Origin: a virus | Length of the DNA stretch: 52,588 bases | IMG/VR virus record: IMGVR_UViG_3300037234_000222 | Coordinates: 1-52,588 of that record | Reading direction: 5' to 3' (one strand) | Shown: positions 1 to 40,676 of the stretch, piece after piece | How the letters are laid out: each line of letters opens with the position of its first letter | Position numbering within the stretch: position 1 is the stretch's first letter | Program-made: the position numbers and the translations under genes | The notes under the pieces: generated by a model | Database searches by the model: none | Seen by the model: the letters and a program-made list of their open reading frames with translations, nothing else | Told to the model about the DNA's origin: nothing

Positions 1-1095
1 TTCAAAGTTATCTTCTTTGTACTCATGAGTAGGTGACTTTCTGGAAGCTTTTTGTGCTACATACTGATCAAAACCAGCATCCAGATAAGAAGAATCAGAA
101 TCAAATCTTGCTTGGTCGTATCCTTCAGCACCTTTAAGAACTGCCTTCTTGATAACTTCAAGAGGTTCGTTTTTGATCTCTTCGAACTCTTTTGAATCCA
201 TCCGACTCTTTGCGCCTTCCCAAACCTTTAAGGTTTCTTTGGCAATAACTAGAGCCTTTTCATCAATAGTTTTTGAATCGTTTCTTTCTTCAAGTTCTTT
301 TTTAGCGGTGGACAATTCGCCCGACATGCTATCAAACTTGGCATCTCTTGAAGATAAAAGATTCTTAGCCGTATGGCCAATATCTTCCATCCTGTTTCTT
401 AGCAGTTGAACTGCCGCCTCTGCACCTTCGGGAATCTCAGTATGAAAAGAATCAAACTTCTTTTCCCCAATGGTAAAGGCTGGAATTTCAATTTTCATTC
501 TCGATTCCCCTTGCTGTTGTTTATTGCCTTGCGGCTGTGATTGCTCGTTTTCATCTACTTGCCAAGCCCCGTTGTCTAGGCGGATAGAGCAACCTTCCCC
601 CCTTCCTTTAATGGTGCTTGTGAGATGGTTGTAAACTATGTTTCTTTGGATTCTGTCGTACTTGCCGAACTCTGGATCAATGCCTGATTTGTCTTCGATG
701 TCGCATTCATAGCCAGCCGATACGTCAAGTGCATCTTGTTTTGTGATCTTGGAAACGCCAGCTTCATCATGTACCGCCACGGATACTTCGAGAAATAGAC
801 CGTCTTCCCTAACGCTTTCACCTGTCGAGCCAACTGAATGTGCTTTTACGGTCTTTGAGGTGAGAAGCCCGCCTTTGTGTTCTAGGCTGAATGGCTTCAT
901 AGTTAAAGTATTCATTGAGTCTTGCTTGAATACTTCTTCTCTTGGCCTCAATTCTCTAGTCACCTTGCCAGACTTATCTCGATAGATAAAGACTCCGGCT
1001 CTGGTCGCACGAACACGATCAAGACGAAGAAACCCGTTCTTGTCTGGCGTGAGCTTGCCTAATTTATGAGTATGTTTGTCTAGTCTTAAAACCAT
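1..1095 (-). CDS. DUF2213-type prohead protease/scaffold protein (C-terminus cut by window edge)
   Basis: 365 codons are open from the ATG at 1095 to the window edge with no stop. The N-terminal ~200 residues resemble the DUF2213 family, which sits just before the cement and capsid genes in many tailed phages and is thought to act as prohead protease and scaffold. The segment HSVGSTGES and the later DVSAGYECDIE fit its core. Residues ~200-365 are charged and helical, suitable for a scaffold. An internal ATG (MKIEIPAF) could give a scaffold-only product, as in protease/scaffold nested genes; that is inference. There is no Shine-Dalgarno before the ATG; a sigma70 promoter lies directly upstream instead. 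Confidence 0.75.
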   Translation of the reverse strand, partial: MVLRLDKHTHKLGKLTPDKNGFLRLDRVRATRAGVFIYRDKSGKVTRELRPREEVFKQDSMNTLTMKPFSLEHKGGLLTSKTVKAHSVGSTGESVREDGLFLEVSVAVHDEAGVSKITKQDALDVSAGYECDIEDKSGIDPEFGKYDRIQRNIVYNHLTSTIKGRGEGCSIRLDNGAWQVDENEQSQPQGNKQQQGESRMKIEIPAFTIGEKKFDSFHTEIPEGAEAAVQLLRNRMEDIGHTAKNLLSSRDAKFDSMSGELSTAKKELEERNDSKTIDEKALVIAKETLKVWEGAKSRMDSKEFEEIKNEPLEVIKKAVLKGAEGYDQARFDSDSSYLDAGFDQYVAQKASRKSPTHEYKEDNFE

Positions 1096-1100
1096 AGCGA

Positions 1101-1130
1101 ATTATAAACAATCTTTTAAGTATTCGTCAA
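1101..1130 (-). promoter_or_regulatory. Sigma70 promoter giving a probably leaderless DUF2213 transcript
   Basis: On the minus strand, TTGACG (1125-1130), an 18-base spacer and a perfect TATAAT (1101-1106). Only five bases (TCGCT) separate the -10 box from the ATG at 1095, so the predicted start of transcription is at or next to the A of the ATG. It probably starts the protease-cement-capsid operon independently of the membrane cassette upstream. Confidence 0.7.
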
Positions 1131-1442
1131 GCGTTCTTTTGCTGTTTTATATATCTCTTGCAACTCTTCATTACCTGAAATATACCATTCAAGAAGTCTA
1201 ACGTGAACCTCGAACCAATAACCTAATGAAACTAAAGAAATAAATAAGGCTAAATAAACCATTCTAATGATAAATCTAGCCTTTAATGATTGAACCCCAT
1301 CTCTTTCAGCATCTGTATTTTCTGCATATGCCATTGTCAATTTATAGGCATACACCAAAGAACCGAAGCATAAAAGCAGGGGCCAGTAAATTCTAATCAG
1401 AGTCGAAAGTCCGAATACGGCTACTAGATCGAATGGATTCAT
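1116..1442 (-). CDS. Small membrane protein, two transmembrane segments
   Basis: 108 residues with hydrophobic segments at roughly 5-33 and 60-78, then a charged C-terminal tail. The start overlaps the stop of the upstream gene (TAATG), so translation is probably coupled. It is the last gene of a cassette of membrane and exported proteins that interrupts the head module. Family not recognised. Confidence 0.7.
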   Translation of the reverse strand: MNPFDLVAVFGLSTLIRIYWPLLLCFGSLVYAYKLTMAYAENTDAERDGVQSLKARFIIRMVYLALFISLVSLGYWFEVHVRLLEWYISGNEELQEIYKTAKERLTNT

Positions 1443-1996
1443 TAGTTATACCCATACTCAATCAGGGTTGATTCTGGAAGCTGCCTCATAAGGTCGAGTG
1501 CTTTCCTCATCTCATCAAGCTCGGCCTGAGTAAACCCAGTAGCAGATGGATCAATATATTCGGTATGCCCACTAAAAGCGAAGATCAAAGAACCAATTAC
1601 GCCCATGCAAAAGATGAATATTCCAAAGCTCTTATCCGCCGCAACGAATGGTTCAAAACCTGTACTTGGGAACCACATAGCCGTAAATTGCCAGAACGCT
1701 GCATACCCAATAAGCCCACCAACAAAAAGCTTTCCTAGATACTTCAAGGTAGGGTTGAATTTTGAGGAAGCAAACAGCATCATTGAAAAGAAGTTCAAGG
1801 CAAACAAGCCCCCTTCAAGACTGAATGGATCAATTGAATCGGACCCCATGTATCCAGTGGTCGCAAGTGAGATAGTCACCCCGATAAATAAAACATACAT
1901 TACAACATGAATTTGCTTTAGCTCGTTCAGTTTATCATAAAGCGACTGTAGCCACTCTTGAATTGTCTGGTCTGCCTTCTCTGTATTAAATGTCAT
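1442..1996 (-). CDS. Polytopic membrane protein, about four transmembrane segments
   Basis: 185 residues from the ATG at 1996 (preceded by GGGGGAC), chosen over an upstream ATG that lacks a ribosome site. The N-terminal ~35 residues are amphipathic (TIQEWLQSLYDKL), followed by hydrophobic segments near 33-52, 63-78, 86-104 and 123-140 and a soluble acidic tail. The start overlaps the preceding gene by 11 bases. Family not recognised; a role as the core membrane part of the cassette is inference. Confidence 0.72.
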   Translation of the reverse strand: MTFNTEKADQTIQEWLQSLYDKLNELKQIHVVMYVLFIGVTISLATTGYMGSDSIDPFSLEGGLFALNFFSMMLFASSKFNPTLKYLGKLFVGGLIGYAAFWQFTAMWFPSTGFEPFVAADKSFGIFIFCMGVIGSLIFAFSGHTEYIDPSATGFTQAELDEMRKALDLMRQLPESTLIEYGYN

Positions 1997-2279
1997 TTTG
2001 TCCCCCACTATAAAAAACTGCAATATTTTTAACCTCTTCGCTCTTAACCACCTTAACTAAAAACGGATAGTTTTTATTTTGATAAAGGCAATAATGATAC
2101 TGAGCATATTTTTTATGGCCGCCCTTATTAAAGCTTTCAAAGTCGATAGCCCTATTAGTTTTTGAAAATGAATACAATTCGCAATATGTTTCCTTGTCAG
2201 TTCTTACCGCACCATCAATATTAACTGCATAAATGCTTGATGGGATAATAAAAAACGCTGCCAATAAAATCAATCTCAT
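1986..2279 (-). CDS. Exported small protein of the membrane cassette
   Basis: 97 residues from the ATG at 2279, which has AGGAGG eleven bases upstream; a longer frame exists but has no ribosome site. The N-terminus (MRLILLAAFF, then SSIYA) is a typical Sec signal peptide with cleavage after residue ~19. The mature part contains two cysteines, which could form a disulfide in the periplasm. No family recognised. Confidence 0.7.
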   Translation of the reverse strand: MRLILLAAFFIIPSSIYAVNIDGAVRTDKETYCELYSFSKTNRAIDFESFNKGGHKKYAQYHYCLYQNKNYPFLVKVVKSEEVKNIAVFYSGGQNDI

Positions 2280-2923
2280 TCTGCACCTCCTAAGTCGATT
2301 ATACATCTAAACATCTTCTTTCCACTCCACCCATCATCACCACCGTCAAAGAATCCCTCTTGTGGTCTTTGGACAACGCTTGCTGATTTAACTTCCTTCT
2401 CTGTAGCTGGATAAGCATTTTGGGAATCACAAAGATCCATTGCATCTTCAGAGATAAGATTTGAGTACTCAATTTCTAACGGCTTCCCATCCCTAAACCA
2501 AACATCTTTCATCACAAAAATATCTTTCTTATCGACAACCGCATATTGATAAACATCCCGCATTGGCACACCAACTGTTTCTTGGAAGTCCTTTGCAGAT
2601 AATGTTTGATAGATTGGGTGCCGATTCAATACCGTACTCTTAAAGGCCACCTTTGTGATCTTCTCAGTAACAGGCTCTAACCCCCCACTTGCAAGGTGGG
2701 TCGATACCTCTTTAATATCCTTTACAGTCCATGAGTAAATACCAAGCGTACTGACTAAAACTAAGATGGTCCCATAGAAAAGGAATTTCCAAATATACCA
2801 CTGGAAGGTAAGGATCAACAAACTTCTCAGAGTTCCAATAAATCCGCTTTTAGTCGCCCAACTATCAGCCTCATGTGATTCACTTAAGCTTGGCTGACTG
2901 TTATATTCGTTTGGGTCAAACAT
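2276..2923 (-). CDS. Membrane-anchored protein of the patatin-like cassette
   Basis: 215 residues: a soluble polar N-terminus (~1-25), one long or two short hydrophobic stretches at ~29-67, then a ~145-residue domain with two cysteines (DLCDSQ and FRCIIDL) that is probably periplasmic. The gene overlaps the patatin-like gene upstream by 8 bases and the exported gene downstream by 4, so the products are likely made together. No family recognised. Confidence 0.7.
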   Translation of the reverse strand: MFDPNEYNSQPSLSESHEADSWATKSGFIGTLRSLLILTFQWYIWKFLFYGTILVLVSTLGIYSWTVKDIKEVSTHLASGGLEPVTEKITKVAFKSTVLNRHPIYQTLSAKDFQETVGVPMRDVYQYAVVDKKDIFVMKDVWFRDGKPLEIEYSNLISEDAMDLCDSQNAYPATEKEVKSASVVQRPQEGFFDGGDDGWSGKKMFRCIIDLGGAE

Positions 2924-4025
2924 TGACTACCTCCTTTCCGCTCATGATTGCCGCTTCAATGTATTTCTTTCTTGAATCGAAGCGTTTTACTGCATCAATT
3001 GGCTTGGCCTCATATGCAACTAGGTTATTGCTTGGCCTTCTACCGCTTCCCAATAAATGCTCTTTCATGATCACAGCTATATTTTGAAGTGATCTTGTTC
3101 TTTGGTTGTGGTTGTAAATCCTTTGGGGGCAAGTAATATTTGTAACCAGCCCCGTATTATTGATCAAGAAACTAACAGATGACCTTGTAAAATCCCCGGC
3201 CATAATACTATATCCCTTTGCAATTGGTTTTGTATCAAAATCAATTGGGTCAAGTACGGTACACATCAAAGCTTGATATACTGGCATTACTGGAAGTTCT
3301 TTCTTTGTGATCAGCAATGTTCGCCCTGAAATATCCATTGCTGGAATGAAAAGCTCTTTGGACAATTGACCCATTAGCATATCCCGCCCGTTTACCTTGA
3401 ACGCTTTTCTTAATGCCCTTTCAACCTTCTTTGGGTTTCTCTGACCTGTTCTAAGGTACTTTAAACCGCCTCTAGTAGCCTTTCTTAGCTCTTTACCCCA
3501 CCATAAGGATAGATCATAAGTAGACCGCCCGGCTGCATACCAAGCGGCGATAATGGCCCCAAAGCCAACACCTGAAAACAAGTCGTAAGTTCCAGCCAAG
3601 TTTGCTTGTTCTTTCGCTTCCAAGTCTCTGGCAATCTCGATGAACCCAAAACCCCTTGTGTAAAAGCACTGGTCAAAGCAGATAGCCCTCTTGTAATTAT
3701 GCCGAATGAAAAGCTTTTTCCGGCCTTCAATGATGGACTCTCTGAAATCTTGGCTGCTCTTTTGCTCAATCATATAATTGGCAATTGGATGCCCATCCTC
3801 ATGAATCACAAGCTTTAGAGTATCATTTGGCTGAAATGAATTAAGATCAAGTTTTAAGGCTTGCTCAGTCATTTGATCAACGATGATCTCTTTTTTTGTC
3901 GGGTTGCTGTTTAGTAGCTGGACCTCTACCCTTGGCGCACGTTCGCCTGACAGATTGATTTCAACCAGCTTCTTTTTGCCGTTTGGCACTTTGATCGTGA
4001 ATGGTCTTCCTACTACCTGTTCCAT
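2916..4025 (-). CDS. Patatin-fold protein lacking the catalytic dyad (pseudo-phospholipase)
   Basis: 369 residues. Residues ~1-105 form a beta-rich N-terminal domain; ~112 onward match the patatin fold. Known patatins have an oxyanion loop DGGGxRG, a nucleophile elbow GxSxG and a DG[GA] aspartate. Here the equivalents are FDQCFYTRG (117-125), SGVGFGAIIAA (151-161, serine replaced by glycine) and SIMAGDF (273-279, no aspartate at the dyad position). The surrounding residues (TYDLF before the elbow, AAG after it, VYQALMCT before the last motif) still align, so the fold appears kept while catalysis is lost. It could be a structural, lipid-binding or regulatory protein. Neighbours are exported and membrane proteins. 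The fold call is fairly secure; the role is unknown. Confidence 0.72.
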   Translation of the reverse strand: MEQVVGRPFTIKVPNGKKKLVEINLSGERAPRVEVQLLNSNPTKKEIIVDQMTEQALKLDLNSFQPNDTLKLVIHEDGHPIANYMIEQKSSQDFRESIIEGRKKLFIRHNYKRAICFDQCFYTRGFGFIEIARDLEAKEQANLAGTYDLFSGVGFGAIIAAWYAAGRSTYDLSLWWGKELRKATRGGLKYLRTGQRNPKKVERALRKAFKVNGRDMLMGQLSKELFIPAMDISGRTLLITKKELPVMPVYQALMCTVLDPIDFDTKPIAKGYSIMAGDFTRSSVSFLINNTGLVTNITCPQRIYNHNQRTRSLQNIAVIMKEHLLGSGRRPSNNLVAYEAKPIDAVKRFDSRKKYIEAAIMSGKEVVNV

Positions 4026-4026
4026 A

Positions 4027-4302
4027 TCAGTCTTCTATTCTAACGGTTATGTTTTGCCCCGGCATTGATCGAATCAAGGCGATGGTTAACTCTTGAGCGT
4101 CCTTCTCAGATGCCCCTTGTGCTATTAATTCTTTCTTGTACGACATAATAAACCCAGCTAGAGCCTTTGGAATCTTTTCATTCTCTAAAGTGCTAATGAT
4201 CATCTCTGTCATTATCTTGCTCTCTATCTCATCCATAAATGGAAGTGAGAAGGCGTTTGTTGTGATTAGGATGAACCCGATTATTAAGCTAAATTTTTTC
4301 AT
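4027..4302 (-). CDS. Small exported protein preceding the patatin-like gene
   Basis: 91 residues with a clear signal peptide (MKKFSLIIGFILI, then TNAFS) and a helical mature part. The ATG follows directly on the stop of the preceding gene (TAAATG) and the next gene starts one base after its stop. It looks like the first gene of the membrane cassette. No family recognised. Confidence 0.68.
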   Translation of the reverse strand: MKKFSLIIGFILITTNAFSLPFMDEIESKIMTEMIISTLENEKIPKALAGFIMSYKKELIAQGASEKDAQELTIALIRSMPGQNITVRIED

Positions 4303-4557
4303 TTAACCCTTGTTGTTCATATTTTGAAGCATCATATACTTGACGAACTCCATTTCACCAATAAGCGCATTTGACACTTTCCCATAAAAAGTTTGACCTG
4401 TTAGACCGTTCTCTTCACGAATAATGCTCAAGCCAGAAACACGCCCGCTCTTTACCTTTTCGATTTCACCTTCAAGGCATTTAATCATTCCTTCCTTAAG
4501 ATGTTCCCATTTCTCTTTTTTCTCTTTCTTAGGTAAAACGTGAATTTTATCACTCAT
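4303..4557 (-). CDS. Small hypothetical protein of the head module
   Basis: 84 residues, lysine- and glutamate-rich at the N-terminus (KKEKKEKWEHLKEG), soluble and without motifs I recognise. It sits tightly between the head morphogenesis gene and the exported protein, with start and stop codons almost touching on both sides, so it is probably translated as part of the head operon. Confidence 0.6.
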   Translation of the reverse strand: MSDKIHVLPKKEKKEKWEHLKEGMIKCLEGEIEKVKSGRVSGLSIIREENGLTGQTFYGKVSNALIGEMEFVKYMMLQNMNNKG

Positions 4558-5385
4558 TTAATCCTCATATACGTTTTCAGCATAACACCGACATTGAATA
4601 TCTTCCCCCGGATGATTTCTCTCACCCGCTCGTTTTCCTGTGGTAACTGTTACAGGCGGTTTATTCCAATCCTGCTCAGTTCCGTTTAATTCTTCGTGCC
4701 TATCTCGCTCCCTTCCATCAATGTTGGTGTGCCAGATATATTTTGTAACCCCGTTTCCTGTGGCCAATTGTCTTTCAAGCTGGCCGTTAATGCTGGATAC
4801 CTGATCCCTTGCGATTAGTTGCGCCCGTTGCTTTGATACTCCGAACTCTGCCTTGATCTTTGTGGCAATCGTGCTGTTTAAATCACCCCCTTGGAATCCA
4901 TCAGATACGATCCGATAAACATCATCGAAGTATCCTTGGCCTAGACTTGTGATCATTTCCACGTTTGATGCCGTTGCTGTATCAATGTAATCACTCAAGC
5001 CCGGTACATTCTTAATTGGGTCTACACCCTGAATCTTTTTGTGGCTCCGTTTGAACTTTGACCATTGAGCCGCTTGCACACCTCGAATCATTAGATTGAC
5101 AATATTCCTCTCAACAAACCCAGAATATCGGATCATGTTTGGCTGTTCACCTGCTTTTAACCTTTGACCGAAGAAAGTACCCATTGCAAAAGCAAAAGCG
5201 TCTTGTAAGCGGTCTAAAAGTGATTTCGTTGCATCAAGCCTTGTGTTACCTCTTATCTCCTCTAGGTTCGCAATTATAAGCTCATCAATGATCTTTTTAA
5301 GCCTTCGCATCTCTTTTGTTATGTTGCTTGCATAACTTTGGGTCTTCGTTTTGATGTATCTTGGCTCTGAGCTTTTCTTGGTCAT
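4558..5385 (-). CDS. Phage head morphogenesis protein (Mu gpF-like)
   Basis: 275 residues. The C-terminal ~110 residues carry the Mu F-like head morphogenesis domain: RAQLIARDQVSSINGQL, then YIWHTNIDGRERDRHEELNG and a closing HPGEDIQCRCYAE. This family is a minor capsid protein found next to the portal, needed for head assembly and possibly DNA ejection. Here it is separated from portal by three virion-protein genes. It overlaps the upstream Tad2-like gene by 4 bases. Confidence 0.9.
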   Translation of the reverse strand: MTKKSSEPRYIKTKTQSYASNITKEMRRLKKIIDELIIANLEEIRGNTRLDATKSLLDRLQDAFAFAMGTFFGQRLKAGEQPNMIRYSGFVERNIVNLMIRGVQAAQWSKFKRSHKKIQGVDPIKNVPGLSDYIDTATASNVEMITSLGQGYFDDVYRIVSDGFQGGDLNSTIATKIKAEFGVSKQRAQLIARDQVSSINGQLERQLATGNGVTKYIWHTNIDGRERDRHEELNGTEQDWNKPPVTVTTGKRAGERNHPGEDIQCRCYAENVYED

Positions 5386-5594
5386 TCAGATACAACCCAA
5401 TCTTCAGAAAAAAGTTCGATCATTGTTTCTTTCCATGGGACTAGGCCAAATCGTGACTCAACATATAAATATGGGGCTGTCATTTTGCTGTGTGCATCTG
5501 GAAATTGTGCCTTGATAACTACATCTTCAGACCATTGAGGCAACCTCATACATTTTCCATTTTTTACTTCTTCAAGTGCTTGCCCAAAATTCAT
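5382..5594 (-). CDS. Tad2-like (DUF2829) anti-Thoeris protein
   Basis: 70 residues matching the DUF2829/Tad2 pattern: start MNFGQALEEVKNGK, the basic-aromatic MRLPQW, and the end LVPWKETMIELFSEDWVV. Tad2 proteins of other phages bind and sequester the cyclic ADP-ribose signal of Thoeris defence in the cytoplasm. The length is near the low end of the family. It is wedged inside the head operon between a structural gene and the Mu F-like gene. Family assignment is from pattern memory; activity is inference. Confidence 0.75.
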   Translation of the reverse strand: MNFGQALEEVKNGKCMRLPQWSEDVVIKAQFPDAHSKMTAPYLYVESRFGLVPWKETMIELFSEDWVVSE

Positions 5595-6481: not shown

Positions 6482-7041
6482 TTTAAGAATTCCTCTTGTG
6501 AGCCTAAGCTATCTTGTTGAAAATGGAAATCGATCTCATAAAGAAACGCACCAGAGCCATAATCATCAGCCCCATCAGCTACGTCTCGGAATACACGGCA
6601 TAGAAATAGCTGTGATAGTTCCCATCCCGTTGTATCTATCATTGCGAGATCAAAATATTGATTCTGCTTTGCTGTTCCGCTTGCGGTTGCCGCATTTGTA
6701 ACTATTGTAGTGGTCGATAAGTCCCCATCAATAGCAGCCGCTACATATTCAAGCCCCCATACAACACCGCCCGCACCCGCATCTGAAGCACCCCAATGAA
6801 CATGGCAATCTAAATCAGTACCGATCAGCCAACTATGAGGCATCTGAGCTACAAAGTATAATTCCTGTTCTTGATTCTGGCTAAACGAATAAGTGAATAC
6901 CCCTTGAGATCCAGCCCCATTATCCCCTACCTTTGTAAATGTTGGGTCTTTAGTTCCACCCACCTTTGTCGAAGTGATTGGGAACCTGAGATCGGTCCAG
7001 TTTGTCCCACGACTTACTGGTATTTTTAAAGGATCACCCAT
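6478..7041 (-). CDS. Virion protein, jelly-roll-like
   Basis: 187 residues. The opening WTDLRFPITSTKVGG and the later LYFVAQMPHSWLIGTDLDCHVHW resemble uncharacterised phage virion proteins with a beta-sandwich fold that often accompany the DAFGRxR-type protein encoded just upstream. Its start overlaps the upstream stop (TAATG). Receptor or head-decoration role is inference. Confidence 0.68.
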   Translation of the reverse strand: MGDPLKIPVSRGTNWTDLRFPITSTKVGGTKDPTFTKVGDNGAGSQGVFTYSFSQNQEQELYFVAQMPHSWLIGTDLDCHVHWGASDAGAGGVVWGLEYVAAAIDGDLSTTTIVTNAATASGTAKQNQYFDLAMIDTTGWELSQLFLCRVFRDVADGADDYGSGAFLYEIDFHFQQDSLGSQEEFLK

Positions 7042-8324
7042 TATTCAAACTCCGTAAAATCAATGGTTGATTGAACATCAGAAGTAGTGCTTTCTGCATT
7101 GGCATAAACTACAAACAGCTCTGAGTTGGTTGAATCAAGATTTTGAGAAATAAAACTATGCTTGCTTGTCTCAGAAGTTGAAGAGTCTGTGGAATCGCCT
7201 TTCGCCCCTGCTACAATGAAATCGCTTGTAAACCTGTGGATGTCACCACCTACGATTACAATTGGGCCTGTCTGTCCAGCGTTCTCAACTGCTTGCTCAA
7301 TTCCACTCTCCGCCGTGTCAATGTCTTCCCAATTCGCATCAATAGAAGTTATCCCCCTTACCTGAGCAACTTGGAATAGAACATCTTTCCCGACTGCCTT
7401 AAAGGTGGCATGGTTGAAATGCGCCGTCCTTCTATTCTCTTTGGATTTAAATGTATTCTTAAGCCTCATTACCAAGATAGGGGTAATCGCATGCTTTTCT
7501 GTTACTGGCGATGTAACTGGTACTGTTCTTGCCAATAGCCCGTTTGTTGCCGTAAATTCAAATCCTAATGGTGTTCCTTCACCTTCGGTATAAACAGCCG
7601 AACAGATTTGCTTGATTGAGTCGCCTGTAGTGCTTCCAAAGTCTCTTATTTCATAGCTTACAGGTAGCGTAGGAGTTCGCATATAAACAATATCAAGCTC
7701 ATTTGAGTGGCTCTCTTCATGGCAAATAATACTTATCCCGCCAATATTTAAATAAAACCTAACCCTTCCAGCCCCTAACCATTGAATATCAAAAGAAAGG
7801 ATTTGTGACTTCGTAATATCTAAGGTAAGTTTACTAGGCCCTGTTCCATCCAGCTTATCTTTATTCCATGCGGATTGGAGAATCTCGTTTTCAACTGCCG
7901 ATCCAGATGCATCCGATCTAATGACGAACTTTAAATCAGCTCCGTCATCTTCAAAATAAACACCGTTTAGATGATCAAAATACCCGGCTCGCTTGGTTAC
8001 ATTTGCCGTACTCGCACCAAATATTGTAGTAAGATCGATTAAATGACTTTGCCCTGAAACGTATGTGAAATACCTTGATGATCTTCTAATGGCATAAGAA
8101 CCATTAGTTCCATTAGTTGACATCTGAACAGATGATTCATCCGAAAGATAAGTGATCGCTCCACCCACCGCAAAGTCCTCATTCCAGAAATCAGACCCAC
8201 TATCAAATAAATGCTTACTTTCAAAAAGCATCTTTGGTTTTGATTGTCGGAATCTTCCGAACGCATCTACCGCCGGACTATCGGCTGGTATAGTTTGAAT
8301 TACAGTTGGGTCAAGGCTGCTCAT
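7041..8324 (-). CDS. Virion structural protein of the DAFGRxR type
   Basis: 427 residues. Residues ~20-36 (DAFGRFRQSKPKMLFES) match the N-terminal signature of a widespread group of phage structural proteins, often annotated only as virion protein. The rest is beta-rich and without membrane segments. It starts two codons after the 20-residue KPKP peptide ends (TAGATG). Together with the next two genes it makes a fibre-like block in the head module, an unusual place for receptor-binding genes. Confidence 0.75.
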   Translation of the reverse strand: MSSLDPTVIQTIPADSPAVDAFGRFRQSKPKMLFESKHLFDSGSDFWNEDFAVGGAITYLSDESSVQMSTNGTNGSYAIRRSSRYFTYVSGQSHLIDLTTIFGASTANVTKRAGYFDHLNGVYFEDDGADLKFVIRSDASGSAVENEILQSAWNKDKLDGTGPSKLTLDITKSQILSFDIQWLGAGRVRFYLNIGGISIICHEESHSNELDIVYMRTPTLPVSYEIRDFGSTTGDSIKQICSAVYTEGEGTPLGFEFTATNGLLARTVPVTSPVTEKHAITPILVMRLKNTFKSKENRRTAHFNHATFKAVGKDVLFQVAQVRGITSIDANWEDIDTAESGIEQAVENAGQTGPIVIVGGDIHRFTSDFIVAGAKGDSTDSSTSETSKHSFISQNLDSTNSELFVVYANAESTTSDVQSTIDFTEFE

Positions 8325-8387
8325 CTACTTACCTTTAGGCTTTGGTTTAGGTGCTGGCTTTCCACCGTATCCTTTATTTTTCGGCAT
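8325..8387 (-). CDS. 20-residue Gly/Lys/Pro-rich microprotein
   Basis: ATG at 8387 with AAAAGGAAAAG directly upstream. The peptide is MPKNKGYGGKPAPKPKPKGK: basic, no hydrophobic segment. It overlaps the 3' end of portal by 14 bases and abuts the next start. Similar Lys/Gly/Pro peptides follow portal genes in other phages. A related PKPGPKPKAK tail closes the protein at 50506-50838. It may act only to couple translation. Confidence 0.5.
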   Translation of the reverse strand: MPKNKGYGGKPAPKPKPKGK

Positions 8388-9798
8388 CTTTTCCTTTTAT
8401 ATTATTCTGTTTTAGAGCTTCAGTTTTCTTTTCCATTTCTTCTTGCTCCATTTCGTCAATCTCTTCCAGACTCTTCCTATCGCCCTCTTCAAGTCTCATA
8501 GATGTGTAATCAGGTACACGCCCTGCAAATCTTGCGTTAGAAACCTCATTTGGGCTAAGGTTTCCCTCTTGTTGATAAATTTGATCAGCTTGGGCTACTT
8601 TAAGCCGCATCTCAGCTTCCTGTAGCGGGTCAAGTTGCTCAAGTGACCTAAACCTAAACCCAACCTTATCAGGGTCAAACCCCATGTAGGTTGAAATAAT
8701 CTTAAGCCATTGCCTAATAGCCGGGGCATAGTTCATCTTTTGGCGAGCTAGAATCCAGTCTTGAAAGTTTTTCCTACTCCCTTCAATAATATCTGCACCC
8801 ATTGACCCGCTTTCGCCCGTGTATAGCTTGTCATAAGGAACCCTTGATGAACTAGATACTCGCTTAGGGTAAGAGTCCATAAGTTCGACTAGGCCAGCTA
8901 TAGGGATGCTTGTCACCTCGAATTCCTCACCAGCCCCATATACTGCAACATTATTGATCCCCATCCTTTGGAAGAGATTTGACATCCTCTTACGGATTGC
9001 CCCAAGGATAGAGTCGTCTTTTGCCCCCTTCCATTTTTCCATGTTGGGGGATTTAAATTTGTATTGCCAGAACTTTTGAAAGGCTTCTGAACCCGTATCG
9101 CTCCCTACCGTATCTTTTCGAATGTCGTTGAAGATATGGGTCAATGTAGGTTCGCTCCAACCATGGTTAAAGGCTTGGTTTTGAATTCCTGTGAATGGAC
9201 CTGTGAACCTGATCACTCTTGAGAAGTGAACCGTTTCAGAGAATGCAGTTGAATAGTATGGGATAGCCGCCCGGTATTTCCTTGGCTTGCTGTAGTTCTC
9301 ATTGAACATATCGTTTTCAATGTCGAGTGGGGTCATTTGCCACCTATCCCCAACCTGAATATTGATTACCCCCTTTGAATTATTTAGCTCTTGATCATAT
9401 TGGTCTGAGCCATCATCCATTGTGAATATAAGGCCCCCACCACCTGACTTTCCAGCTTCGATCAGGGCTTTATAGTTCCATACTTCCCAATCAAGCCGCT
9501 CTAGTTCTTCCTCAATCTCATCAATCAGGGTTTCATCTTGTTCATCAGAGACAAAGAAATCAACCCCGCCCTTGATCATTTCCCATGCTGGAATGTCAAT
9601 TACGTTTCTAGCGGTTCCATTCTCTTGATATAACGCCTCAATTGTGTTCCTGCCAAGGAATAGACGTTGGGTCACCCCTGTTTGCTGAATAGTTGACCTC
9701 TCCCCACCAAATCCATTTGTGGAGTTGTAGAAATTATCTAATCTTTCAGCTTGCTTGTTCAATTCTTCAACCCAGTCATTTTTATCTTTTTTGGCCAT
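8374..9798 (-). CDS. Portal protein (DUF1073-like)
   Basis: 474 residues, typical portal length. The N-terminal part (FLGRNTIEALYQENGTARNVIDIPAWEM) fits the DUF1073 portal group: entry into a ring forming the DNA gate of the capsid. The C-terminus is charged and helical (LEEIDEMEQEEMEKKTEAL). The ATG at 9798 lacks a Shine-Dalgarno, and a promoter with its -10 six bases upstream makes a leaderless message likely. It is separated from terminase by the plus-strand island. Confidence 0.85.
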   Translation of the reverse strand: MAKKDKNDWVEELNKQAERLDNFYNSTNGFGGERSTIQQTGVTQRLFLGRNTIEALYQENGTARNVIDIPAWEMIKGGVDFFVSDEQDETLIDEIEEELERLDWEVWNYKALIEAGKSGGGGLIFTMDDGSDQYDQELNNSKGVINIQVGDRWQMTPLDIENDMFNENYSKPRKYRAAIPYYSTAFSETVHFSRVIRFTGPFTGIQNQAFNHGWSEPTLTHIFNDIRKDTVGSDTGSEAFQKFWQYKFKSPNMEKWKGAKDDSILGAIRKRMSNLFQRMGINNVAVYGAGEEFEVTSIPIAGLVELMDSYPKRVSSSSRVPYDKLYTGESGSMGADIIEGSRKNFQDWILARQKMNYAPAIRQWLKIISTYMGFDPDKVGFRFRSLEQLDPLQEAEMRLKVAQADQIYQQEGNLSPNEVSNARFAGRVPDYTSMRLEEGDRKSLEEIDEMEQEEMEKKTEALKQNNIKGKDAEK

Positions 9799-11563: not shown

Positions 11564-12013
11564 ATGAAAATTTATTGTTGTGATTGTGGGAAGAAAGTAT
11601 CTGCAAGGCTAACGGATGGAAAAGAAGTATATCCGCACAGGAAAGACCTCTGCAAATTGCCTTTCTGGAAATGCGATTCATGTGGTAACTTTGTTGGATG
11701 CCACCATAAAACAGGAAACAGAACGGCCCCGCTTGGTGTAATTCCAAGCCAAGAAATCAAAGAGATTAGAAAAGAGATTCATACTATTATTGATCCTCTT
11801 TGGCAGGAAATGGATATTGACAGGTCTGATATTTACTCTAAAATTAGTGACAAATTAGGCTACGAGTATCACACAGCAAACATTAGAACCGCCAAAGAAG
11901 GTGAGAAAATATTAAGTATTGTAAATGAACTGTGTAGGCAAGATTTCACAAGTAATTCAATGAAAAGATTAACCTCATACGCAATGCTAGGGTCAGCTTT
12001 CTTAGGCGATTAA
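11564..12013 (+). CDS. Zinc-finger-containing protein (DUF3268-like)
   Basis: 149 residues from the ATG at 11564, preceded by AGGAAGGGGAAGTAGG. The order IYCCDCGKKV, EVYPHRKDLCKLPFWKCDSC, FVGCH, PLGVIPSQEIKEIRKEIH and IDPLW matches the zinc-finger-containing DUF3268 family of phages. Four CxxC cysteines form the zinc knuckle. Its stop codon overlaps the stop of the convergent terminase gene (12010-12013), leaving no room for a terminator. Confidence 0.78.
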   Translation: MKIYCCDCGKKVSARLTDGKEVYPHRKDLCKLPFWKCDSCGNFVGCHHKTGNRTAPLGVIPSQEIKEIRKEIHTIIDPLWQEMDIDRSDIYSKISDKLGYEYHTANIRTAKEGEKILSIVNELCRQDFTSNSMKRLTSYAMLGSAFLGD

Positions 12014-13719
12014 TCCCACCCCGCAAGCTCAACAGCATAATACCTAGCCAAATTTGCGAGGGCAAGTGAATCCCCATCATCAGGGGAGCCTTGCCCGGTT
12101 CTATCCTTGTATTCCTTTTTGGATTCAATCATCATTTTAGAATCGTTCTTTGAATGCACCATCATGATTGTTGGTAGCTGTTCAAGGTAAATTGTGTACT
12201 CAGGATTCAAGCAGAGCTGGCCCATTTCTTTACCGCCGCCCTTGGCCATGAATCTGCCTAGACCATATCCTTTTAGATCGGTTGATAGCTGGTCAAACAT
12301 CTTGGCCTTGATGTTTTGATAGTGCGCCCGGTCCTGTTCAACTGCCCTGTCTTCTTCATGTGTCTTATCCTTTAATGCAAAGTCATCAGCCCACCCAAAA
12401 TAGTACTTATCAAATGAAGTAGACCCGAAAGGAACATCAAAAACCATACATTCATCTAAAAGGCCCTCATACCGCTCTATATACTCTTTGAATAGCTCGG
12501 CCTGTTCAGGGTATCGCCAAGGCTCAATAATTGCCCTCAGAGCATCGTAAACGCCGGGGTTATATCCGGGGTCGACTGCAATTCTCGTTTTCCTTAGTTT
12601 TGGCCACTTGTCACCCTCTAGCCTGTGATAATCGCTTTCAACCAAGAATTCAAAGAACGCCTTTACAACTTGAAAGGTATCATTCCCGTGGAGGGTTTCT
12701 TTTGCCGATTGTTGCCAGCCTAGAATATCTGTGAAGACGGTGCTATCTGATCCGTACCGGGCAACATCCACCCCGATATATCTTAAATCGTCATTATCGA
12801 TCTCATAGGTGTTAGCCATGGAATCACGAACCACTGATTCAGGAATTAGAACGGTTGCATCCTCATCAGGGAATCGGCCTAGAACTTTGGACTGGAAGTC
12901 AGGGTGTTCAGCCCCCTTATCAATCAAAAGCTCAATGCCGAACTGGACGGTAATCAAATGGTGATTATCCACCTTATAATTATTCATCCGCTCAAGAGCA
13001 TCATCCTGATTCAAGGTCGTCAAATAGTCACGCTCTGCAATCAAGTCTTCAAGGCAGGTCATGTTGTTTGCAATGTAGTTTGGAGTATCAAAGCAGGTGA
13101 TAAAGATAGTGTGGTATCCAAGCTGTTTTGATCGGCGGTAGGCTTCACAGTTTCTTGTAGTGGGGTTTCCGATCCCGATCAGCTTATCCCTTGAGTTGGA
13201 CAGGATGCCGTCAACCATTCCCCATACTACAGGTTCAATACCTACACACTCATCTAAGATAGCTACTACCCGGTGCTTAGCGTGATACCCCTGCAATGCA
13301 GAGTTGGCACCTTGGCCTAGCCCGGTTGTTACCTTGCGCTGAACTGAGAACCCTTTGGCAAAGGTTTCGTCGTTAATATCCCATTTTGTGTTGGTGAGTT
13401 TTCCTAATTGCCATTCGGGGGGCATGCCGTTATATCTGGCCGCAATCTCTCTCCACAATAAATCTTCAACCTGCCTATGAGTTGGGGCCGTGGTAATGAT
13501 CTTTGAACCGGGGTGGCAAGTGATATACTTGGGAACCAGTGCCCCTAGCCCGTGGGTCTTCCCTACAGCATGGCAAGCGAAGACAAGTACCTTCCTATAC
13601 TTATCGATGGCATGAAAGACTTTCTGCATATATGGTTCAAGCTCTACCCCTTGGATCAATTCGGCGTGGAGGGCTGAATCTTCTATAATTTCGTGTAGGA
13701 CTTGCTCAGGTATTTGCAT
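12010..13719 (-). CDS. terL: Terminase large subunit
   Basis: 569 residues. ATPase: Walker A CHAVGKTHG (49-57), an adenine-type motif TTAPTHRQ (76-83) and Walker B VVAILDE (151-157). Nuclease: GVDVARYGSD (316-325) and AVDPGYNPG (381-389), with a C-terminal SPDDGDSLALA (~545-555). It cuts concatemeric DNA and pumps it into the prohead through portal. Length and motif order are normal. It is unusually far from the small subunit (2 kb) and separated from portal by the plus-strand island. Confidence 0.92.
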   Translation of the reverse strand: MQIPEQVLHEIIEDSALHAELIQGVELEPYMQKVFHAIDKYRKVLVFACHAVGKTHGLGALVPKYITCHPGSKIITTAPTHRQVEDLLWREIAARYNGMPPEWQLGKLTNTKWDINDETFAKGFSVQRKVTTGLGQGANSALQGYHAKHRVVAILDECVGIEPVVWGMVDGILSNSRDKLIGIGNPTTRNCEAYRRSKQLGYHTIFITCFDTPNYIANNMTCLEDLIAERDYLTTLNQDDALERMNNYKVDNHHLITVQFGIELLIDKGAEHPDFQSKVLGRFPDEDATVLIPESVVRDSMANTYEIDNDDLRYIGVDVARYGSDSTVFTDILGWQQSAKETLHGNDTFQVVKAFFEFLVESDYHRLEGDKWPKLRKTRIAVDPGYNPGVYDALRAIIEPWRYPEQAELFKEYIERYEGLLDECMVFDVPFGSTSFDKYYFGWADDFALKDKTHEEDRAVEQDRAHYQNIKAKMFDQLSTDLKGYGLGRFMAKGGGKEMGQLCLNPEYTIYLEQLPTIMMVHSKNDSKMMIESKKEYKDRTGQGSPDDGDSLALANLARYYAVELAGWD

Positions 13720-14007
13720 CTATCTTTTTCTTTTTCGTTTGTACTCAGCCTTTAAAGCTCGTTCAAGATTCTCTTTCACAGCCCTTGCAAGTTCTTGGTT
13801 TTGAGCCTCCAAAGCTACCAGCTTTAAATCCACCGCCCTTTTATTCCACGCTTCAAGTGCCTTCTCTGTAGTCAACTCTGAAACAGCTTGGGCATCGCAT
13901 TTATCGCAGCTATAGAAATACCCATCTGGGGCGTAATCCCCGCCGCTTTCACTATAGCACCCTATCTTTTCAAACCCACAGAATGGGCAAGGTTTGATCT
14001 CTTCCAT
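13720..14007 (-). CDS. Lar-like restriction alleviation protein
   Basis: 95 residues from the ATG at 14007, which has GGAGG and overlaps the HNH stop (TAATG). Pattern EEIKPCPFCG ... YSCDKCDAQ ... ALEAWNKRA is typical of the Lar family (CPFCG zinc knuckle plus C-terminal WN.R). Lar of Rac prophage protects DNA from type I restriction; whether this member does is inference. The C-terminal ~40 residues are basic and helical. Confidence 0.75.
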   Translation of the reverse strand: MEEIKPCPFCGFEKIGCYSESGGDYAPDGYFYSCDKCDAQAVSELTTEKALEAWNKRAVDLKLVALEAQNQELARAVKENLERALKAEYKRKRKR

Positions 14008-14588
14008 TACTTCCTCCCATGCAATATGTAGTGCATTGACCCCTTGCTTTTGCCGAACTGCTCGCAAAGTGCTTTAAGGCTCACACCTTCTTTAAATAGT
14101 TTCTTGGCCCTATCCTTGTCAGTTTCGCTCAATGACTTTTGATGTCTTTTAGGTGGGGGTGTATAGCTTGGGTCGTTCCAGCTTACATTCTGGATAATTG
14201 AATAAACTGTTTGGTTTCCAAGTTCATAGTCAAACATGATCCTTGATACCGCATGACCTTTTGAATAAGCCCGTCTTATTTGGCCAGCAATCTTCATTGT
14301 AATCTTGGCTTTTGCACTATTCTGGATATTTACGGCACAAGTTACAAAGCGACAATTACTAGGCTCATAGTTTCCATCGTTATCAATGCGGTCAATCTGT
14401 AAGTCTTCCTTATAATGCTTTACAGCCCATTCAGAGAATGATTCAAAGGATAGCCATTCTTTACAGATGGAGATCCCCCTTCCCCCGTACCTATGAAACA
14501 TCTTATCATTGGGGTTATAGCACCGCTTCTTCATGCCAGACCATACTTGGTAGATAGGTCTATGCCTTGCGCTTGATCTTTCGCTCAT
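14007..14588 (-). CDS. HNH homing-type endonuclease with C-terminal HTH
   Basis: 193 residues. YQVWSGMKKRCYNPND, YGGRGISICKEW and IDRIDNDGNYEPSNCRFVT are the hallmark blocks of a phage HNH nuclease family. The C-terminal part has two HTH-like stretches (SRIMFDYELGNQTVYSII and SLKALCEQFGKSKGSMHYIL), probably for target recognition. It lies between the terminase subunits, a common place for homing nucleases, and may explain their separation. Confidence 0.85.
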   Translation of the reverse strand: MSERSSARHRPIYQVWSGMKKRCYNPNDKMFHRYGGRGISICKEWLSFESFSEWAVKHYKEDLQIDRIDNDGNYEPSNCRFVTCAVNIQNSAKAKITMKIAGQIRRAYSKGHAVSRIMFDYELGNQTVYSIIQNVSWNDPSYTPPPKRHQKSLSETDKDRAKKLFKEGVSLKALCEQFGKSKGSMHYILHGRK

Positions 14589-24468: not shown

Positions 24469-24497
24469 GTTGTGGTCATAATAAAGGTTATCTACAC
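24469..24497 (-). promoter_or_regulatory. Promoter overlapped by CACAAC dyad
   Basis: Plus strand GTTGTGGTCATAA (24469-24481), six bases, then TTATCTACACAC: a dyad. On the minus strand, TTGAAA, a 16-base spacer and TATTAT overlap it, so the dyad would cover the -10 and spacer of a promoter for the 24456 gene. Confidence 0.55.
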
Positions 24498-25211
24498 ACT
24501 TTCAATTCGTTCTTGCGCAACCTTGAAATACCCCTCATCATTTTCAATTCCAATGAATTTACGATTGAGGTTTTTTGCTGCTACTCCAGTTGATCCGCTG
24601 CCCATTGTGAAATCCAGTACGGTTTCGTTTTCGTTGGTGTAGGTCTTGATTAGGTATTCTAGTAGGGCTACTGGTTTTTGGGTTGGGTGGACTTTGCCTT
24701 TTTGAGAGGCATTACTTACTTCTAAAATTGCCTTCGGGTATTTATGCGTGTATGCCTTGTTTTCAGTAAAGGCATTATTATTTATCTCAGATTTATTCCC
24801 TTTGTTTCCTCCTCTATATTTTACCTTATCCCGTTTAACCATAATCGGGAAGTAGTTGACTTTTTTACCGCTCTTTTCAAATATCAATATATTTTCAAAA
24901 GTTTTAATCGGTTGTATTTTTGATAACAGAGGATTTCCTCCTTTCTTTTTATCCCACACCCAATCGTACTTGTAATTCTTAATATTACTCATTCTCAAAG
25001 CACTACTAAAAGGCTCACTGCCAAACAAAACGATGGCCCCATTAGGCTTGACAACCCGTTTCAACTCAGACCACATAGGCTCAAACGAAATTATGCTATC
25101 CCATTTGCAGGCCGTGGTCCCATAAGGTGGGTCAGTCAAAATCATATCAACCGACCCCGCAGGAATATCTTTCATCTCCTCCAAGCAATCGCCTAGGATT
25201 AGTTCAATCAT
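24492..25211 (-). CDS. DNA methyltransferase (DPPY type)
   Basis: 239 residues. Catalytic DPPY at 27-30 and S-adenosylmethionine-binding FTMGSGSTG at 201-209, so the catalytic motif precedes the cofactor motif. The fold is the small phage adenine-N6 or cytosine-N4 methyltransferase type (HPTQKPVALLEYLI before the cofactor motif). It may protect phage DNA from restriction. No cognate restriction enzyme is adjacent. Confidence 0.9.
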   Translation of the reverse strand: MIELILGDCLEEMKDIPAGSVDMILTDPPYGTTACKWDSIISFEPMWSELKRVVKPNGAIVLFGSEPFSSALRMSNIKNYKYDWVWDKKKGGNPLLSKIQPIKTFENILIFEKSGKKVNYFPIMVKRDKVKYRGGNKGNKSEINNNAFTENKAYTHKYPKAILEVSNASQKGKVHPTQKPVALLEYLIKTYTNENETVLDFTMGSGSTGVAAKNLNRKFIGIENDEGYFKVAQERIESV

Positions 25212-35691: not shown

Positions 35692-36105
35692 TTACTTACT
35701 AAACTTCTTGATCATTTTGCTATCAGAAAAGAGATGAACGTAGCACCCAAACCCAAAGGCTAGCGATTCGTGGAAGTACCCAAGCTTGTACCCGGCAAGG
35801 GCAAGTAAGGGGGGCAATAGAATTGAATGAGTCCAGCCCCTATGCTTATCCGTCTTGGCAAGCATGAATAGAAGGCCTATGAGGGCGGCGGGATAAGGAT
35901 TGTCTGCCAGTAGGAGGAGAAGGGAACCAGCAACACCAAATCTCGCCGCCCATTTAGACGGTGTGGAATGAATATCTAAATCAGGGAAAAGACCACCCAA
36001 GAAAGCGTATGAACCAACAAGTACGCTCAATCCTTGAGTTGCAGCAAGTGAGGAAACTGCAAGCCCCGCTATGATTGATCCTCTTAGGTGGCCTTTAAAG
36101 TTCAA
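35692..36105 (-). CDS. YdjM-like membrane-bound metal-dependent hydrolase
   Basis: 137 residues. Metal-site motifs in order: H6, PDLD (41-44), HRGWTHS (88-94) and HLFSD (124-128), interleaved with hydrophobic segments. This is the YdjM/DUF457 family of inner-membrane hydrolases, some of which are LexA-regulated. Substrate unknown, probably lipid or envelope related. Last gene of the late operon. All expected motif residues are present. Confidence 0.82.
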   Translation of the reverse strand: MNFKGHLRGSIIAGLAVSSLAATQGLSVLVGSYAFLGGLFPDLDIHSTPSKWAARFGVAGSLLLLLADNPYPAALIGLLFMLAKTDKHRGWTHSILLPPLLALAGYKLGYFHESLAFGFGCYVHLFSDSKMIKKFSK

Positions 36106-36911
36106 AACAAGCCTAGCTCAATTCCTGCAAACAGTTCAGCATCGCCTAGGTTGTGATAGGTATTAATGTCTCTTGAGCCGTTAGGTGCATCATTGAATTT
36201 AAGGCCCCCATAGAGCTTATTGGACCCCACGTAATACCCAATACCAAATTCAGCTAAAAATTGATCGTCACCCACTGTATCGGCTTTAGGTGATCCATTT
36301 AGCCAGACTCTTGAAGAATCCATGATCACCATTCCCATTTGGGCATACATTTCGAATCCCGGTGCTACGTCAAAGTGAAAAGTCGCATGGCCCCACCAGC
36401 GCATAATATCCAGAGAGTCAGAACCTTGATCAGCTACAAATGGAGTGCCAGCAAGCTTGTACGCTTGATACTTCGCCCCAATTGAAAACGAAGGGTTGAA
36501 ATAGTAATGGTAGGTAAAAGCAGACGGTGCAAAGTGAGAGGTAAATTGTCTTCGATAGCCTAGCTCATGAGGCATGTAATAAATTCCCCAATTGATTTGA
36601 AGGGAATGGAGCTTGTCGTATCCAATCCGCTTTACATAGTTTTGCTTGCCATCTAATACACTTTCCCAAGCTTGAATTTCACTTGATAGGGTTCCCGGCC
36701 TTTTCGCTTCTGATTTTCTGGATTGCTTTAGGTTGTATCTGTATTTACACTCCTCAACTGATCCTTTAGTAAAAGGTAGATGATTAGCACCCATACAAGC
36801 GGCCCTCGCATTCTCAGTAAAAAACATGATCGCAAAGATCACAACGGCGGCAAATAGCAGGAACTTAACAATCCTTGCTGGCCATGTAAAAGGGTTTAAA
36901 AATCCTAACAT
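36102..36911 (-). CDS. Outer-membrane beta-barrel-like protein
   Basis: 269 residues. A hydrophobic signal segment (~14-33) followed by ENARAAC suggests export. The rest alternates aromatic strands (QINWGIYYM, FTYHYYFNPSFSIGAKYQAY, GFEMYAQMGMVIM, FLAEFGIGYYVG) and ends in ELFAGIELGLF, with the terminal Phe typical of BAM-recognised barrels. About 8 strands fit. It could change the host surface to block other phages or detach progeny. Rare in phages. Confidence 0.7.
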   Translation of the reverse strand: MLGFLNPFTWPARIVKFLLFAAVVIFAIMFFTENARAACMGANHLPFTKGSVEECKYRYNLKQSRKSEAKRPGTLSSEIQAWESVLDGKQNYVKRIGYDKLHSLQINWGIYYMPHELGYRRQFTSHFAPSAFTYHYYFNPSFSIGAKYQAYKLAGTPFVADQGSDSLDIMRWWGHATFHFDVAPGFEMYAQMGMVIMDSSRVWLNGSPKADTVGDDQFLAEFGIGYYVGSNKLYGGLKFNDAPNGSRDINTYHNLGDAELFAGIELGLF

Positions 36912-40077: not shown

Positions 40078-40676
40078 TTGACTAAACCTCCTAAAATCCC
40101 GCCTGTCGGATCGCTTAAGCTACTAAAGCCTCTACTCGCAGGTGTTGTAAGTGTTGTTGTTGAAAATAAAAAATACGCTTCAGATTCAATAGCAATTGTA
40201 TCAATTTCTACCCCGGCCTGTTTAGCTTGGCGAATTGATTCGGCTATGAGAGGACCATTTGTAATTGTTGAAGGATCAACTACTTCCACGAAAATCAATG
40301 CCGTAGCAGGATAATATTCATCAACCTCAACACTTAACGCCTCTGGGATGTTTACCTTTACTACAGAAATTAAATCCTCAATCCCGCCGTGCTTTGTTTT
40401 TTGGAAGATAGCCGTCTTAAGAGCCGTTCTATAAACTTCATCCCCTTGACCCTGCCTTGGAACGTCTAAGAACTCCCCGATATGATCAAGCTGAATCCCT
40501 GCGCCATCATAGATTCCAGTAAGTAATAAGACTTGCTGAGTTGCATCCTCAAACAATTGAAGTTCAGCCGAATAAACAGCAATCGACTTCTCAAAGTTCG
40601 GCTTTCTCAGATTTGGAATGACTTTTTCTAACCCGTTCTCTAATTGATCAAGAGGGTCGATCATATTATCTGTCAT
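40074..40676 (-). CDS. Baseplate protein, DUF2612-like
   Basis: 200 residues. EDATQQVLLLTGIYDGAGIQLDHIGEFLDVPRQ and EVYRTALKTAIFQKTKHGG fit DUF2612, a baseplate protein encoded between baseplate J and the fibre; it probably links fibre to baseplate. Overlaps both neighbours by 4 bases. Confidence 0.85.
   Translation of the reverse strand: MTDNMIDPLDQLENGLEKVIPNLRKPNFEKSIAVYSAELQLFEDATQQVLLLTGIYDGAGIQLDHIGEFLDVPRQGQGDEVYRTALKTAIFQKTKHGGIEDLISVVKVNIPEALSVEVDEYYPATALIFVEVVDPSTITNGPLIAESIRQAKQAGVEIDTIAIESEAYFLFSTTTLTTPASRGFSSLSDPTGGILGGLVK

What the first reader, a model, noticed from the sequence alone, without database searches (positions are those of the whole stretch)
2916..4025. Patatin-fold protein with all catalytic positions lost
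The oxyanion loop, the GxSxG serine and the DG[GA] aspartate of patatins are replaced by DQCFYTRG, GVGFG and MAGDF while the flanking fold residues remain. Active patatin effectors (phospholipases) act in CBASS-type defence. A phage-borne inactive copy could be a decoy, inhibitor, lipid sensor or structural protein.
Basis: partly seen in the sequence, partly recalled or inferred. Interest (0 to 1): 0.8.

Follow-up and report, generated by a model that had tools for sequence, protein, structure and literature searches.

The report
Dead patatin phospholipase in phage operon
An uncultured tailed phage carries, among its head-assembly genes, a protein built like a bacterial membrane-cutting enzyme but missing every catalytic residue and placed next to membrane-protein genes, so the phage probably uses the enzyme's shape rather than its chemistry.

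Summary
ORF 2916-4025 (-), 369 aa, is a true patatin homologue over residues ~113-270. An HMM of 56 phage-contig patatins scores it 32.7 bits, against at most 2.2 for 200 shuffles. An alignment-guided AlphaFold2 model (pTM 0.75) matches CapV, CapE, iPLA2 and patatin at VIA Z ~20-22.

Arg124 and Gly125 survive. I found no shifted alignment that restores Ser.

No homologue shares these losses, and the closest relatives found keep Ser, GGG and DGG. The proposed test, conservation among phage homologues, therefore cannot be done. A 100-residue, probably Ig-like domain precedes the patatin domain.

The gene lies in an unbroken head-gene operon, inside a block of signal-peptide and transmembrane genes between the MuF head protein and the DUF2213 protease. 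The near-whole record has no recognisable endolysin, holin or spanin.

A non-catalytic, basic, membrane-binding part of a late envelope or lysis cassette is my preferred reading (0.4). A CBASS decoy is possible but no closer to CBASS than to patatins in general.

The parts
2916..4025 (-). Patatin-fold pseudoenzyme gene, 369 aa plus stop
   Evidence: Intact ORF; Pfam Patatin 2.6e-5; patatin HMM 32.7 bits vs at most 2.2 in shuffles
3726..4025 (-). N-terminal ~100 aa, probably an Ig/fn3-like beta sandwich
   Evidence: Single-sequence AF2, seven strands, pLDDT about 45-64; best structural match Z 7.8, DUF3244 Ig-like; weak, since this Z is typical of non-specific matches
3216..3698 (-). Patatin core, residues 110-270
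   Evidence: AF2 with alignment, mostly pLDDT 85-96 over model residues 11-160; VIA Z ~22 to CapV, CapE and iPLA2-beta for the whole domain model
3651..3674 (-). Degenerate oxyanion loop DQCFYTRG (D118-G125) in place of DGGGxRG
   Evidence: Alignment A6 columns
3558..3572 (-). Degenerate nucleophile elbow GVGFG; G154 in place of Ser
   Evidence: Alignment A6 columns
3189..3203 (-). Degenerate DG[GA] region MAGDF; A276 at the catalytic Asp column
   Evidence: Alignment A6; global hhalign agrees
4558..5385 (-). MuF minor head protein, upstream in the operon
   Evidence: PF04233 1.5e-16; phrog_324 1.6e-52
4303..4557 (-). 84 aa unknown, abuts MuF
   Evidence: ORF; no family at E<=0.01
4027..4302 (-). 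91 aa protein with N-terminal signal/TM segment
   Evidence: Hydropathy segment 4-22
2276..2923 (-). 215 aa single-TM protein, start overlaps the pseudo-patatin by 8 nt; AAGGAGGT ribosome site lies inside its 3' end
   Evidence: ORFs, upstream sequence and TM 44-62
1986..2279 (-). Small secreted protein, likely ATG at 2279 within ORF 1986-2306
   Evidence: ORF; hydrophobic N-terminus
1442..1996 (-). Multi-pass membrane protein, likely ATG at 1996 within ORF 1442-2023
   Evidence: ORF; at least two strong TM segments, further hydrophobic stretches by eye
1116..1442 (-). 108 aa protein with two TM segments
   Evidence: Segments 6-24 and 53-71
1..1095 (-). DUF2213 head protease gene, runs off the left end
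   Evidence: PF09979 3.4e-29

Best explanation
The gene encodes a pseudoenzyme. It is a patatin-like phospholipase domain that kept its fold but lost the nucleophilic Ser, the oxyanion glycines and the catalytic Asp, and gained a ~100-residue, probably Ig-like N-terminal domain. It is expressed late with the head genes, coupled to a neighbouring single-TM protein, as the one apparently cytosolic member of a small envelope cassette. The likely mechanism is non-catalytic: the strongly basic patatin domain docks on the anionic inner face of the membrane, while the N-terminal domain and coupled membrane proteins hold or assemble an envelope complex that acts at the end of infection (lysis or egress) or blocks superinfection. 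Shown: homology, residue losses, operon position, membrane-type neighbours, positive charge. Inferred: membrane binding, partner contacts and the stage of action.
For: Homology and fold. Motif losses. Operon: MuF > p84 > p91 > pseudo-patatin > TM215 > secreted > multi-TM > 2-TM > protease, with gaps of about 20 nt or less and several overlaps. The gene just upstream (p91) and the four just downstream are all of signal-peptide or membrane type.

In Rhizobium phage RHph_I65, FP_Brigit and Acinetobacter vB_AbaSI_5 the MuF-to-protease interval lacks such a cassette. No endolysin, holin or spanin family was credibly hit in the ORFs scanned.

Charge: +7.1 per 100 residues in the patatin domain against -0.4 +/- 3.4, maximum 5.6, in 56 phage-contig patatins, in a phage whose median protein is -3.

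Precedents: an S64A CapV-Q329R still causes its phenotype, which needs the Arg of GGGx[KR]G, kept here as R124 (PMC9095652). Phage WO has a putative patatin-plus-holin-like lytic cassette (PMC9203015). In L268 a phage-contig patatin is two genes downstream of a peptidase resembling M15 endolysins (my reading).
Against: No membrane-binding or partner data exist. Basic charge would also suit nucleic-acid binding. CapV-Q329R's catalysis-independent effect also needed the DG[GA] Asp, which is lost here. The WO model relies on an active enzyme. Missing lysis genes may only be too divergent for the libraries. A sigma-70-like match of 11/12 at 1130-1101 lies at the cassette's end, but promoter matches overall are at the chance level. 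The cassette proteins have no recognisable families.
Confidence: 0.4

Rival explanations
1. Counter-defence decoy. The dead CapV/CapE-like protein either binds the host's cyclic nucleotide signal without effect or enters the host phospholipase's filaments and poisons them, blocking CBASS killing.
For: The closest solved folds by Foldseek are CBASS phospholipases; CBASS models match at 1e-6 to 6e-5. The phage carries a Tad2-like protein (PF11195 3e-13) upstream in the same operon and a Lar-like protein. The Acb4 study notes that co-option of host proteins may be a common route for anti-CBASS proteins (PMC11722364).
Against: No preference for CBASS over general patatins in score. Identity of about 15-20% makes co-assembly with a host effector unlikely. 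Expression with head genes is late. CBASS effectors lack an Ig-like N-terminal domain (from general knowledge). The C-terminal third is not recognisable. Whether a signal pocket is kept was not testable.
Confidence: 0.2
2. Virion or head-assembly protein. The Ig-like plus patatin fold decorates or scaffolds the head, the position between MuF and protease reflecting a structural role.
For: It lies in an unbroken head operon. Ig-like domains are common in phage virion proteins. Basic charge could suit contact with DNA.
Against: Related phages pass from MuF to the protease with no equivalent. Its neighbours are secreted or membrane proteins, which head proteins are not. No PHROG structural family matches.
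Confidence: 0.15
3. Decaying gene, recently captured and losing function by drift.
For: No relatives share the state, so purifying selection cannot be measured.
Against: The 369-codon frame is intact and tightly packed. Fold residues (R124, G125, G152, G156, P260, F263) survive while three separate motifs changed. Charge shifted consistently. Divergence is about 80%, so the frame has stayed open over a long time.
Confidence: 0.1
4. An enzyme with a rebuilt, non-serine active site on the patatin scaffold, for example using C120 or D278.
For: A Cys sits in the former oxyanion loop and an Asp lies two residues from the lost one.
Against: No known patatin works this way, and the oxyanion hole is gone. 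There is no positive evidence.
Confidence: 0.04

Closest known systems
CapV / CapE, CBASS cyclic-nucleotide-activated patatin phospholipases
   Same: Patatin core fold (VIA Z ~22); sequence similarity over residues 124-242; Arg of GGGx[KR]G kept
   Different: Ser, oxyanion Gly and catalytic Asp lost; added N-terminal domain; C-terminal half not recognisable; no CD-NTase hit; phage head operon
Phage WO patatin-based putative lytic cassette
   Same: Patatin-type gene of a tailed phage beside small membrane protein(s); canonical lysis genes not recognisable (PMC9203015)
   Different: The WO patatin is a phospholipase-type protein upstream of the tail module with ankyrin and holin-like genes; here the domain is dead and sits between MuF and the head protease
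Patatins of other phage contigs (L170, L268; phrog_25573 family)
   Same: Nearest sequence relatives, 29% identity in the best tblastn segment; RG-to-GxSxG spacing identical in L170
   Different: Keep GGGxRG, GxSxG and DGG, lack the N-terminal extension; the target does not match phrog_25573
Catalysis-independent CapV-Q329R / S64A (PMC9095652)
   Same: A patatin without its Ser acting in a bacterial cell
   Different: Laboratory mutant; its effect still needs the DG[GA] Asp, absent here

Membership tests
Patatin-like phospholipase (PF01734) | Patatin alpha/beta fold | tested here: met
   Model pTM 0.75, Z 20.5-22.6 to patatin, CapV and iPLA2-beta; the model was guided by a patatin alignment, and its C-terminal ~90 residues are low-confidence
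Patatin-like phospholipase (PF01734) | Whole-protein score above the Pfam gathering cut-off | tested here: not met
   24.9 bits vs 27.7
Patatin-like phospholipase (PF01734) | GxSxG nucleophile serine | tested here: not met
   GVGFG, G154
Patatin-like phospholipase (PF01734) | GGGx[KR]G oxyanion motif | tested here: not met
   DQCFYTRG: Gly run lost, one-residue insertion; R and final G kept
Patatin-like phospholipase (PF01734) | DG[GA] catalytic aspartate | tested here: not met
   AGD in the DGG columns, A276
CBASS CapV/CapE effector | Above the NCBIfam CBASS_lipase cut-off | tested here: not met
   22.3 bits vs 200
CBASS CapV/CapE effector | Operon with a CD-NTase | tested here: not met
   No nucleotidyltransferase among reported Pfam/PHROG families of window ORFs
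CBASS CapV/CapE effector | Cyclic-nucleotide binding | not testable with these tools
   No ligand contacts available for comparison; needs a binding assay
Patatin-based phage lytic cassette (phage WO type) | Active patatin next to a holin-like single-TM protein | tested here: not met
   Membrane genes adjacent but catalytic residues lost
Anti-CBASS/anti-Thoeris sponge | Sequesters nucleotide signals | not testable with these tools
   Needs a binding assay

The most novel reading that the evidence does not exclude
A phage has turned a phospholipase fold into a catalytically dead membrane or signal-binding protein that either runs a non-enzymatic lysis/egress cassette or disarms CBASS phospholipases as a decoy. 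I found no described phage pseudo-patatin.
Probability: 0.3. Interest if true: 0.7.

Novelty: new variant of a known kind. Interest (0 to 1): 0.45.

Why it matters
Phage pseudoenzymes of patatin type appear undescribed: literature searches found only active-type phage patatins, such as that of phage WO, and laboratory-made inactive CapV. If the protein works without catalysis, it would show what the patatin fold contributes beyond lipid cleavage, namely membrane docking, assembly or signal binding. That bears on how CapV-type effectors work, and on how phages without recognisable endolysin, holin or spanin genes leave their host.

Tried and rejected
Close relatives by tblastn in phages and plasmids: none at E<=1. 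Single-protein pattern scans of viral and genome contigs: none. A DNA pattern for the protein's own degenerate motifs: no relatives; the 56 matching stretches showed no similarity to it. GVGFGAIIA pattern: 0. Neighbour genes (portal, sheath, MuF) to find sister phages: only one identical 7.7 kb portal contig (L002) that does not reach the gene, and 80 MuF loci without it. The six cassette neighbours in phages: no match. Single-sequence AF2 of the whole protein failed for the patatin part (pLDDT 36.6), so an alignment-guided model of residues 104-369 was used.

Rejected: a shifted alignment restoring Ser/Asp (no Ser within the elbow; the nearest, S151, is three residues before the Gly). 'Specifically a CBASS effector' (scores not above general patatins). 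NCBIfam DS32_1 match (2.7e-4, residues 44-179), treated as chance because it straddles two domains. Structural families missing from the VIA lists are not taken as excluded.

Full report
What the window is. The window is a 52,588-base IMG/VR virus record. It encodes a contractile-tailed phage: tail sheath at 47558-48835, baseplate wedge at 40673-42064, major head protein at 50844-52091, terminase at 12010-13719, portal at 8374-9798 and MuF head protein at 4558-5385. The DUF2213 protease gene runs off the left end. The next head gene starts at 52570, near the right end. Rhizobium phage RHph_I65 has the order MuF, putative head precursor, hypothetical protein, capsid, and Acinetobacter phage vB_AbaSI_5 has MuF, HEPN, DUF2213, hypothetical protein, DUF2184 protein. 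The record therefore reads as a circularly permuted genome with little missing at the join (inference; no terminal repeat was found). The portal's best matches in named phages are 22-27% identical.

The observation. ORF 2916-4025 on the minus strand is 369 codons long and intact. Pfam Patatin matches at 2.6e-5 but below its gathering cut-off, and a CBASS phospholipase model in PADLOC at 1.3e-6. I fetched about 80 patatin genes from viral contigs with a degenerate DNA pattern and built a profile of 56. The target scores 32.7 bits, the best of 200 shuffles 2.2. Homology is real over residues ~123-268.

The lost residues. In the alignment of the target with 53 patatins the nucleophile column holds Gly154 and the three oxyanion glycines are replaced by Gln119, Cys120 and Tyr122, with Phe121 inserted. 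The catalytic Asp column holds Ala276. Asp118, Arg124, Gly125, Gly152 and Gly156 are kept. The 53 comparison sequences were selected for intact DGGGxRG and GxSxG motifs, so those columns are invariant by construction. Seventeen relatives fetched with a pattern that allowed Ser or Gly all have Ser; 16 also have GGG and DGG, while the seventeenth (L278) lacks both. No relative shares the target's state, so conservation of the loss could not be tested.

Structure. Without an alignment AlphaFold2 failed on the patatin part (pLDDT 36.6). With the 54-row alignment the domain (residues 104-369) folds with pTM 0.75 and mostly pLDDT 85-96 over the first ~160 residues; the last ~90 are low-confidence. 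Foldseek's best solved matches are CBASS phospholipases, then patatin and iPLA2-beta, down to E=2e-10. VIA-align gives Z 22.6 for iPLA2-beta, about 22 for CapE and CapV and about 20.5 for patatin. The first three are tied within error, so the fold does not single out CBASS. The first ~100 residues form beta strands resembling Ig-like domains, weakly (Z 7.8).

Surroundings. MuF, an 84-aa protein, a 91-aa signal-peptide protein, the pseudo-patatin, a 215-aa single-TM protein, a small secreted protein, a multi-pass protein, a 108-aa two-TM protein and the head protease follow each other with gaps of about 20 nt or less and several overlaps. The single-TM gene's AAGGAGGT ribosome site lies inside the pseudo-patatin's last codons. 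In the three related phages examined the MuF-to-protease interval holds nothing comparable. Membrane calls rest on a simple hydropathy scan. No endolysin, holin or spanin family was credibly hit in the ORFs scanned; the only such PHROG names were a spanin label on the MuF gene at 0.027 and an endolysin label on the Dit-like tail gene. PHROG output for the pooled scan showed 25 of 38 families, so a hit could be hidden.

Charge. The patatin domain carries +7.1 net charges per 100 residues, above all 56 comparison patatins (mean -0.4, sd 3.4, maximum 5.6), in a phage whose median protein is at -3. This points to an anionic partner, either membrane or nucleic acid.

Function. Shown: homology, loss of the catalytic residues, position, neighbours, charge. 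Inferred: a non-catalytic, membrane-docking member of a late envelope cassette, for lysis/egress or superinfection exclusion (0.4). A precedent for non-catalytic action is CapV-Q329R, which keeps its effect without Ser64 but needs the Arg kept here and also the Asp lost here (PMC9095652). A precedent for phage patatins near lysis genes is the putative WO lytic cassette (PMC9203015) and L268, where a patatin is two genes downstream of a peptidase resembling M15 endolysins. The decoy idea (0.2) gains a little from the Tad2-like gene upstream, but nothing ties the protein to CBASS beyond the general fold.

Verdict. The interpretation as pseudoenzyme is supported; its role is open. It is a singleton in every collection searched, which limits both novelty claims and tests.

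Noticed in passing
window 5382-5594 (-): Tad2-like (PF11195, 3.1e-13) 70-aa protein inside the head operon, immediately upstream of MuF: a candidate anti-Thoeris-type sponge.
   Followed up: no
window 36102-38126 (-): Two envelope-type genes after the tail-fibre genes: a 269-aa protein with an N-terminal hydrophobic segment and a sequence resembling an outer-membrane barrel, and a 404-aa predicted lipoprotein; no family match.
   Followed up: partly
whole window: No endolysin, holin or spanin recognised by Pfam or PHROGs in the ORFs scanned of a nearly whole phage genome.
   Followed up: partly
window 1101-1130 (-): Near-consensus sigma-70-like site (TTGACG-18-TATAAT, 11/12) overlapping the end of the last cassette gene, just before the head protease; overall promoter matches are at the chance level.
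   Followed up: no
L278 about 7001-7760 (+): A bacterial (Flavobacteriales MAG) patatin-like ORF keeps GTSFG but has ECGARG in place of GGGxRG and no DGG: another, unrelated, partly degenerate patatin.
   Followed up: no
window 13720-14067 and 24492-25211 (-): Lar-like restriction-alleviation protein and an N6/N4 DNA methyltransferase.
   Followed up: no
L268 643-2944 (+): Viral contig with an intact patatin gene two genes downstream of a peptidase that resembles M15 endolysins (my reading, no family scan).
   Followed up: partly
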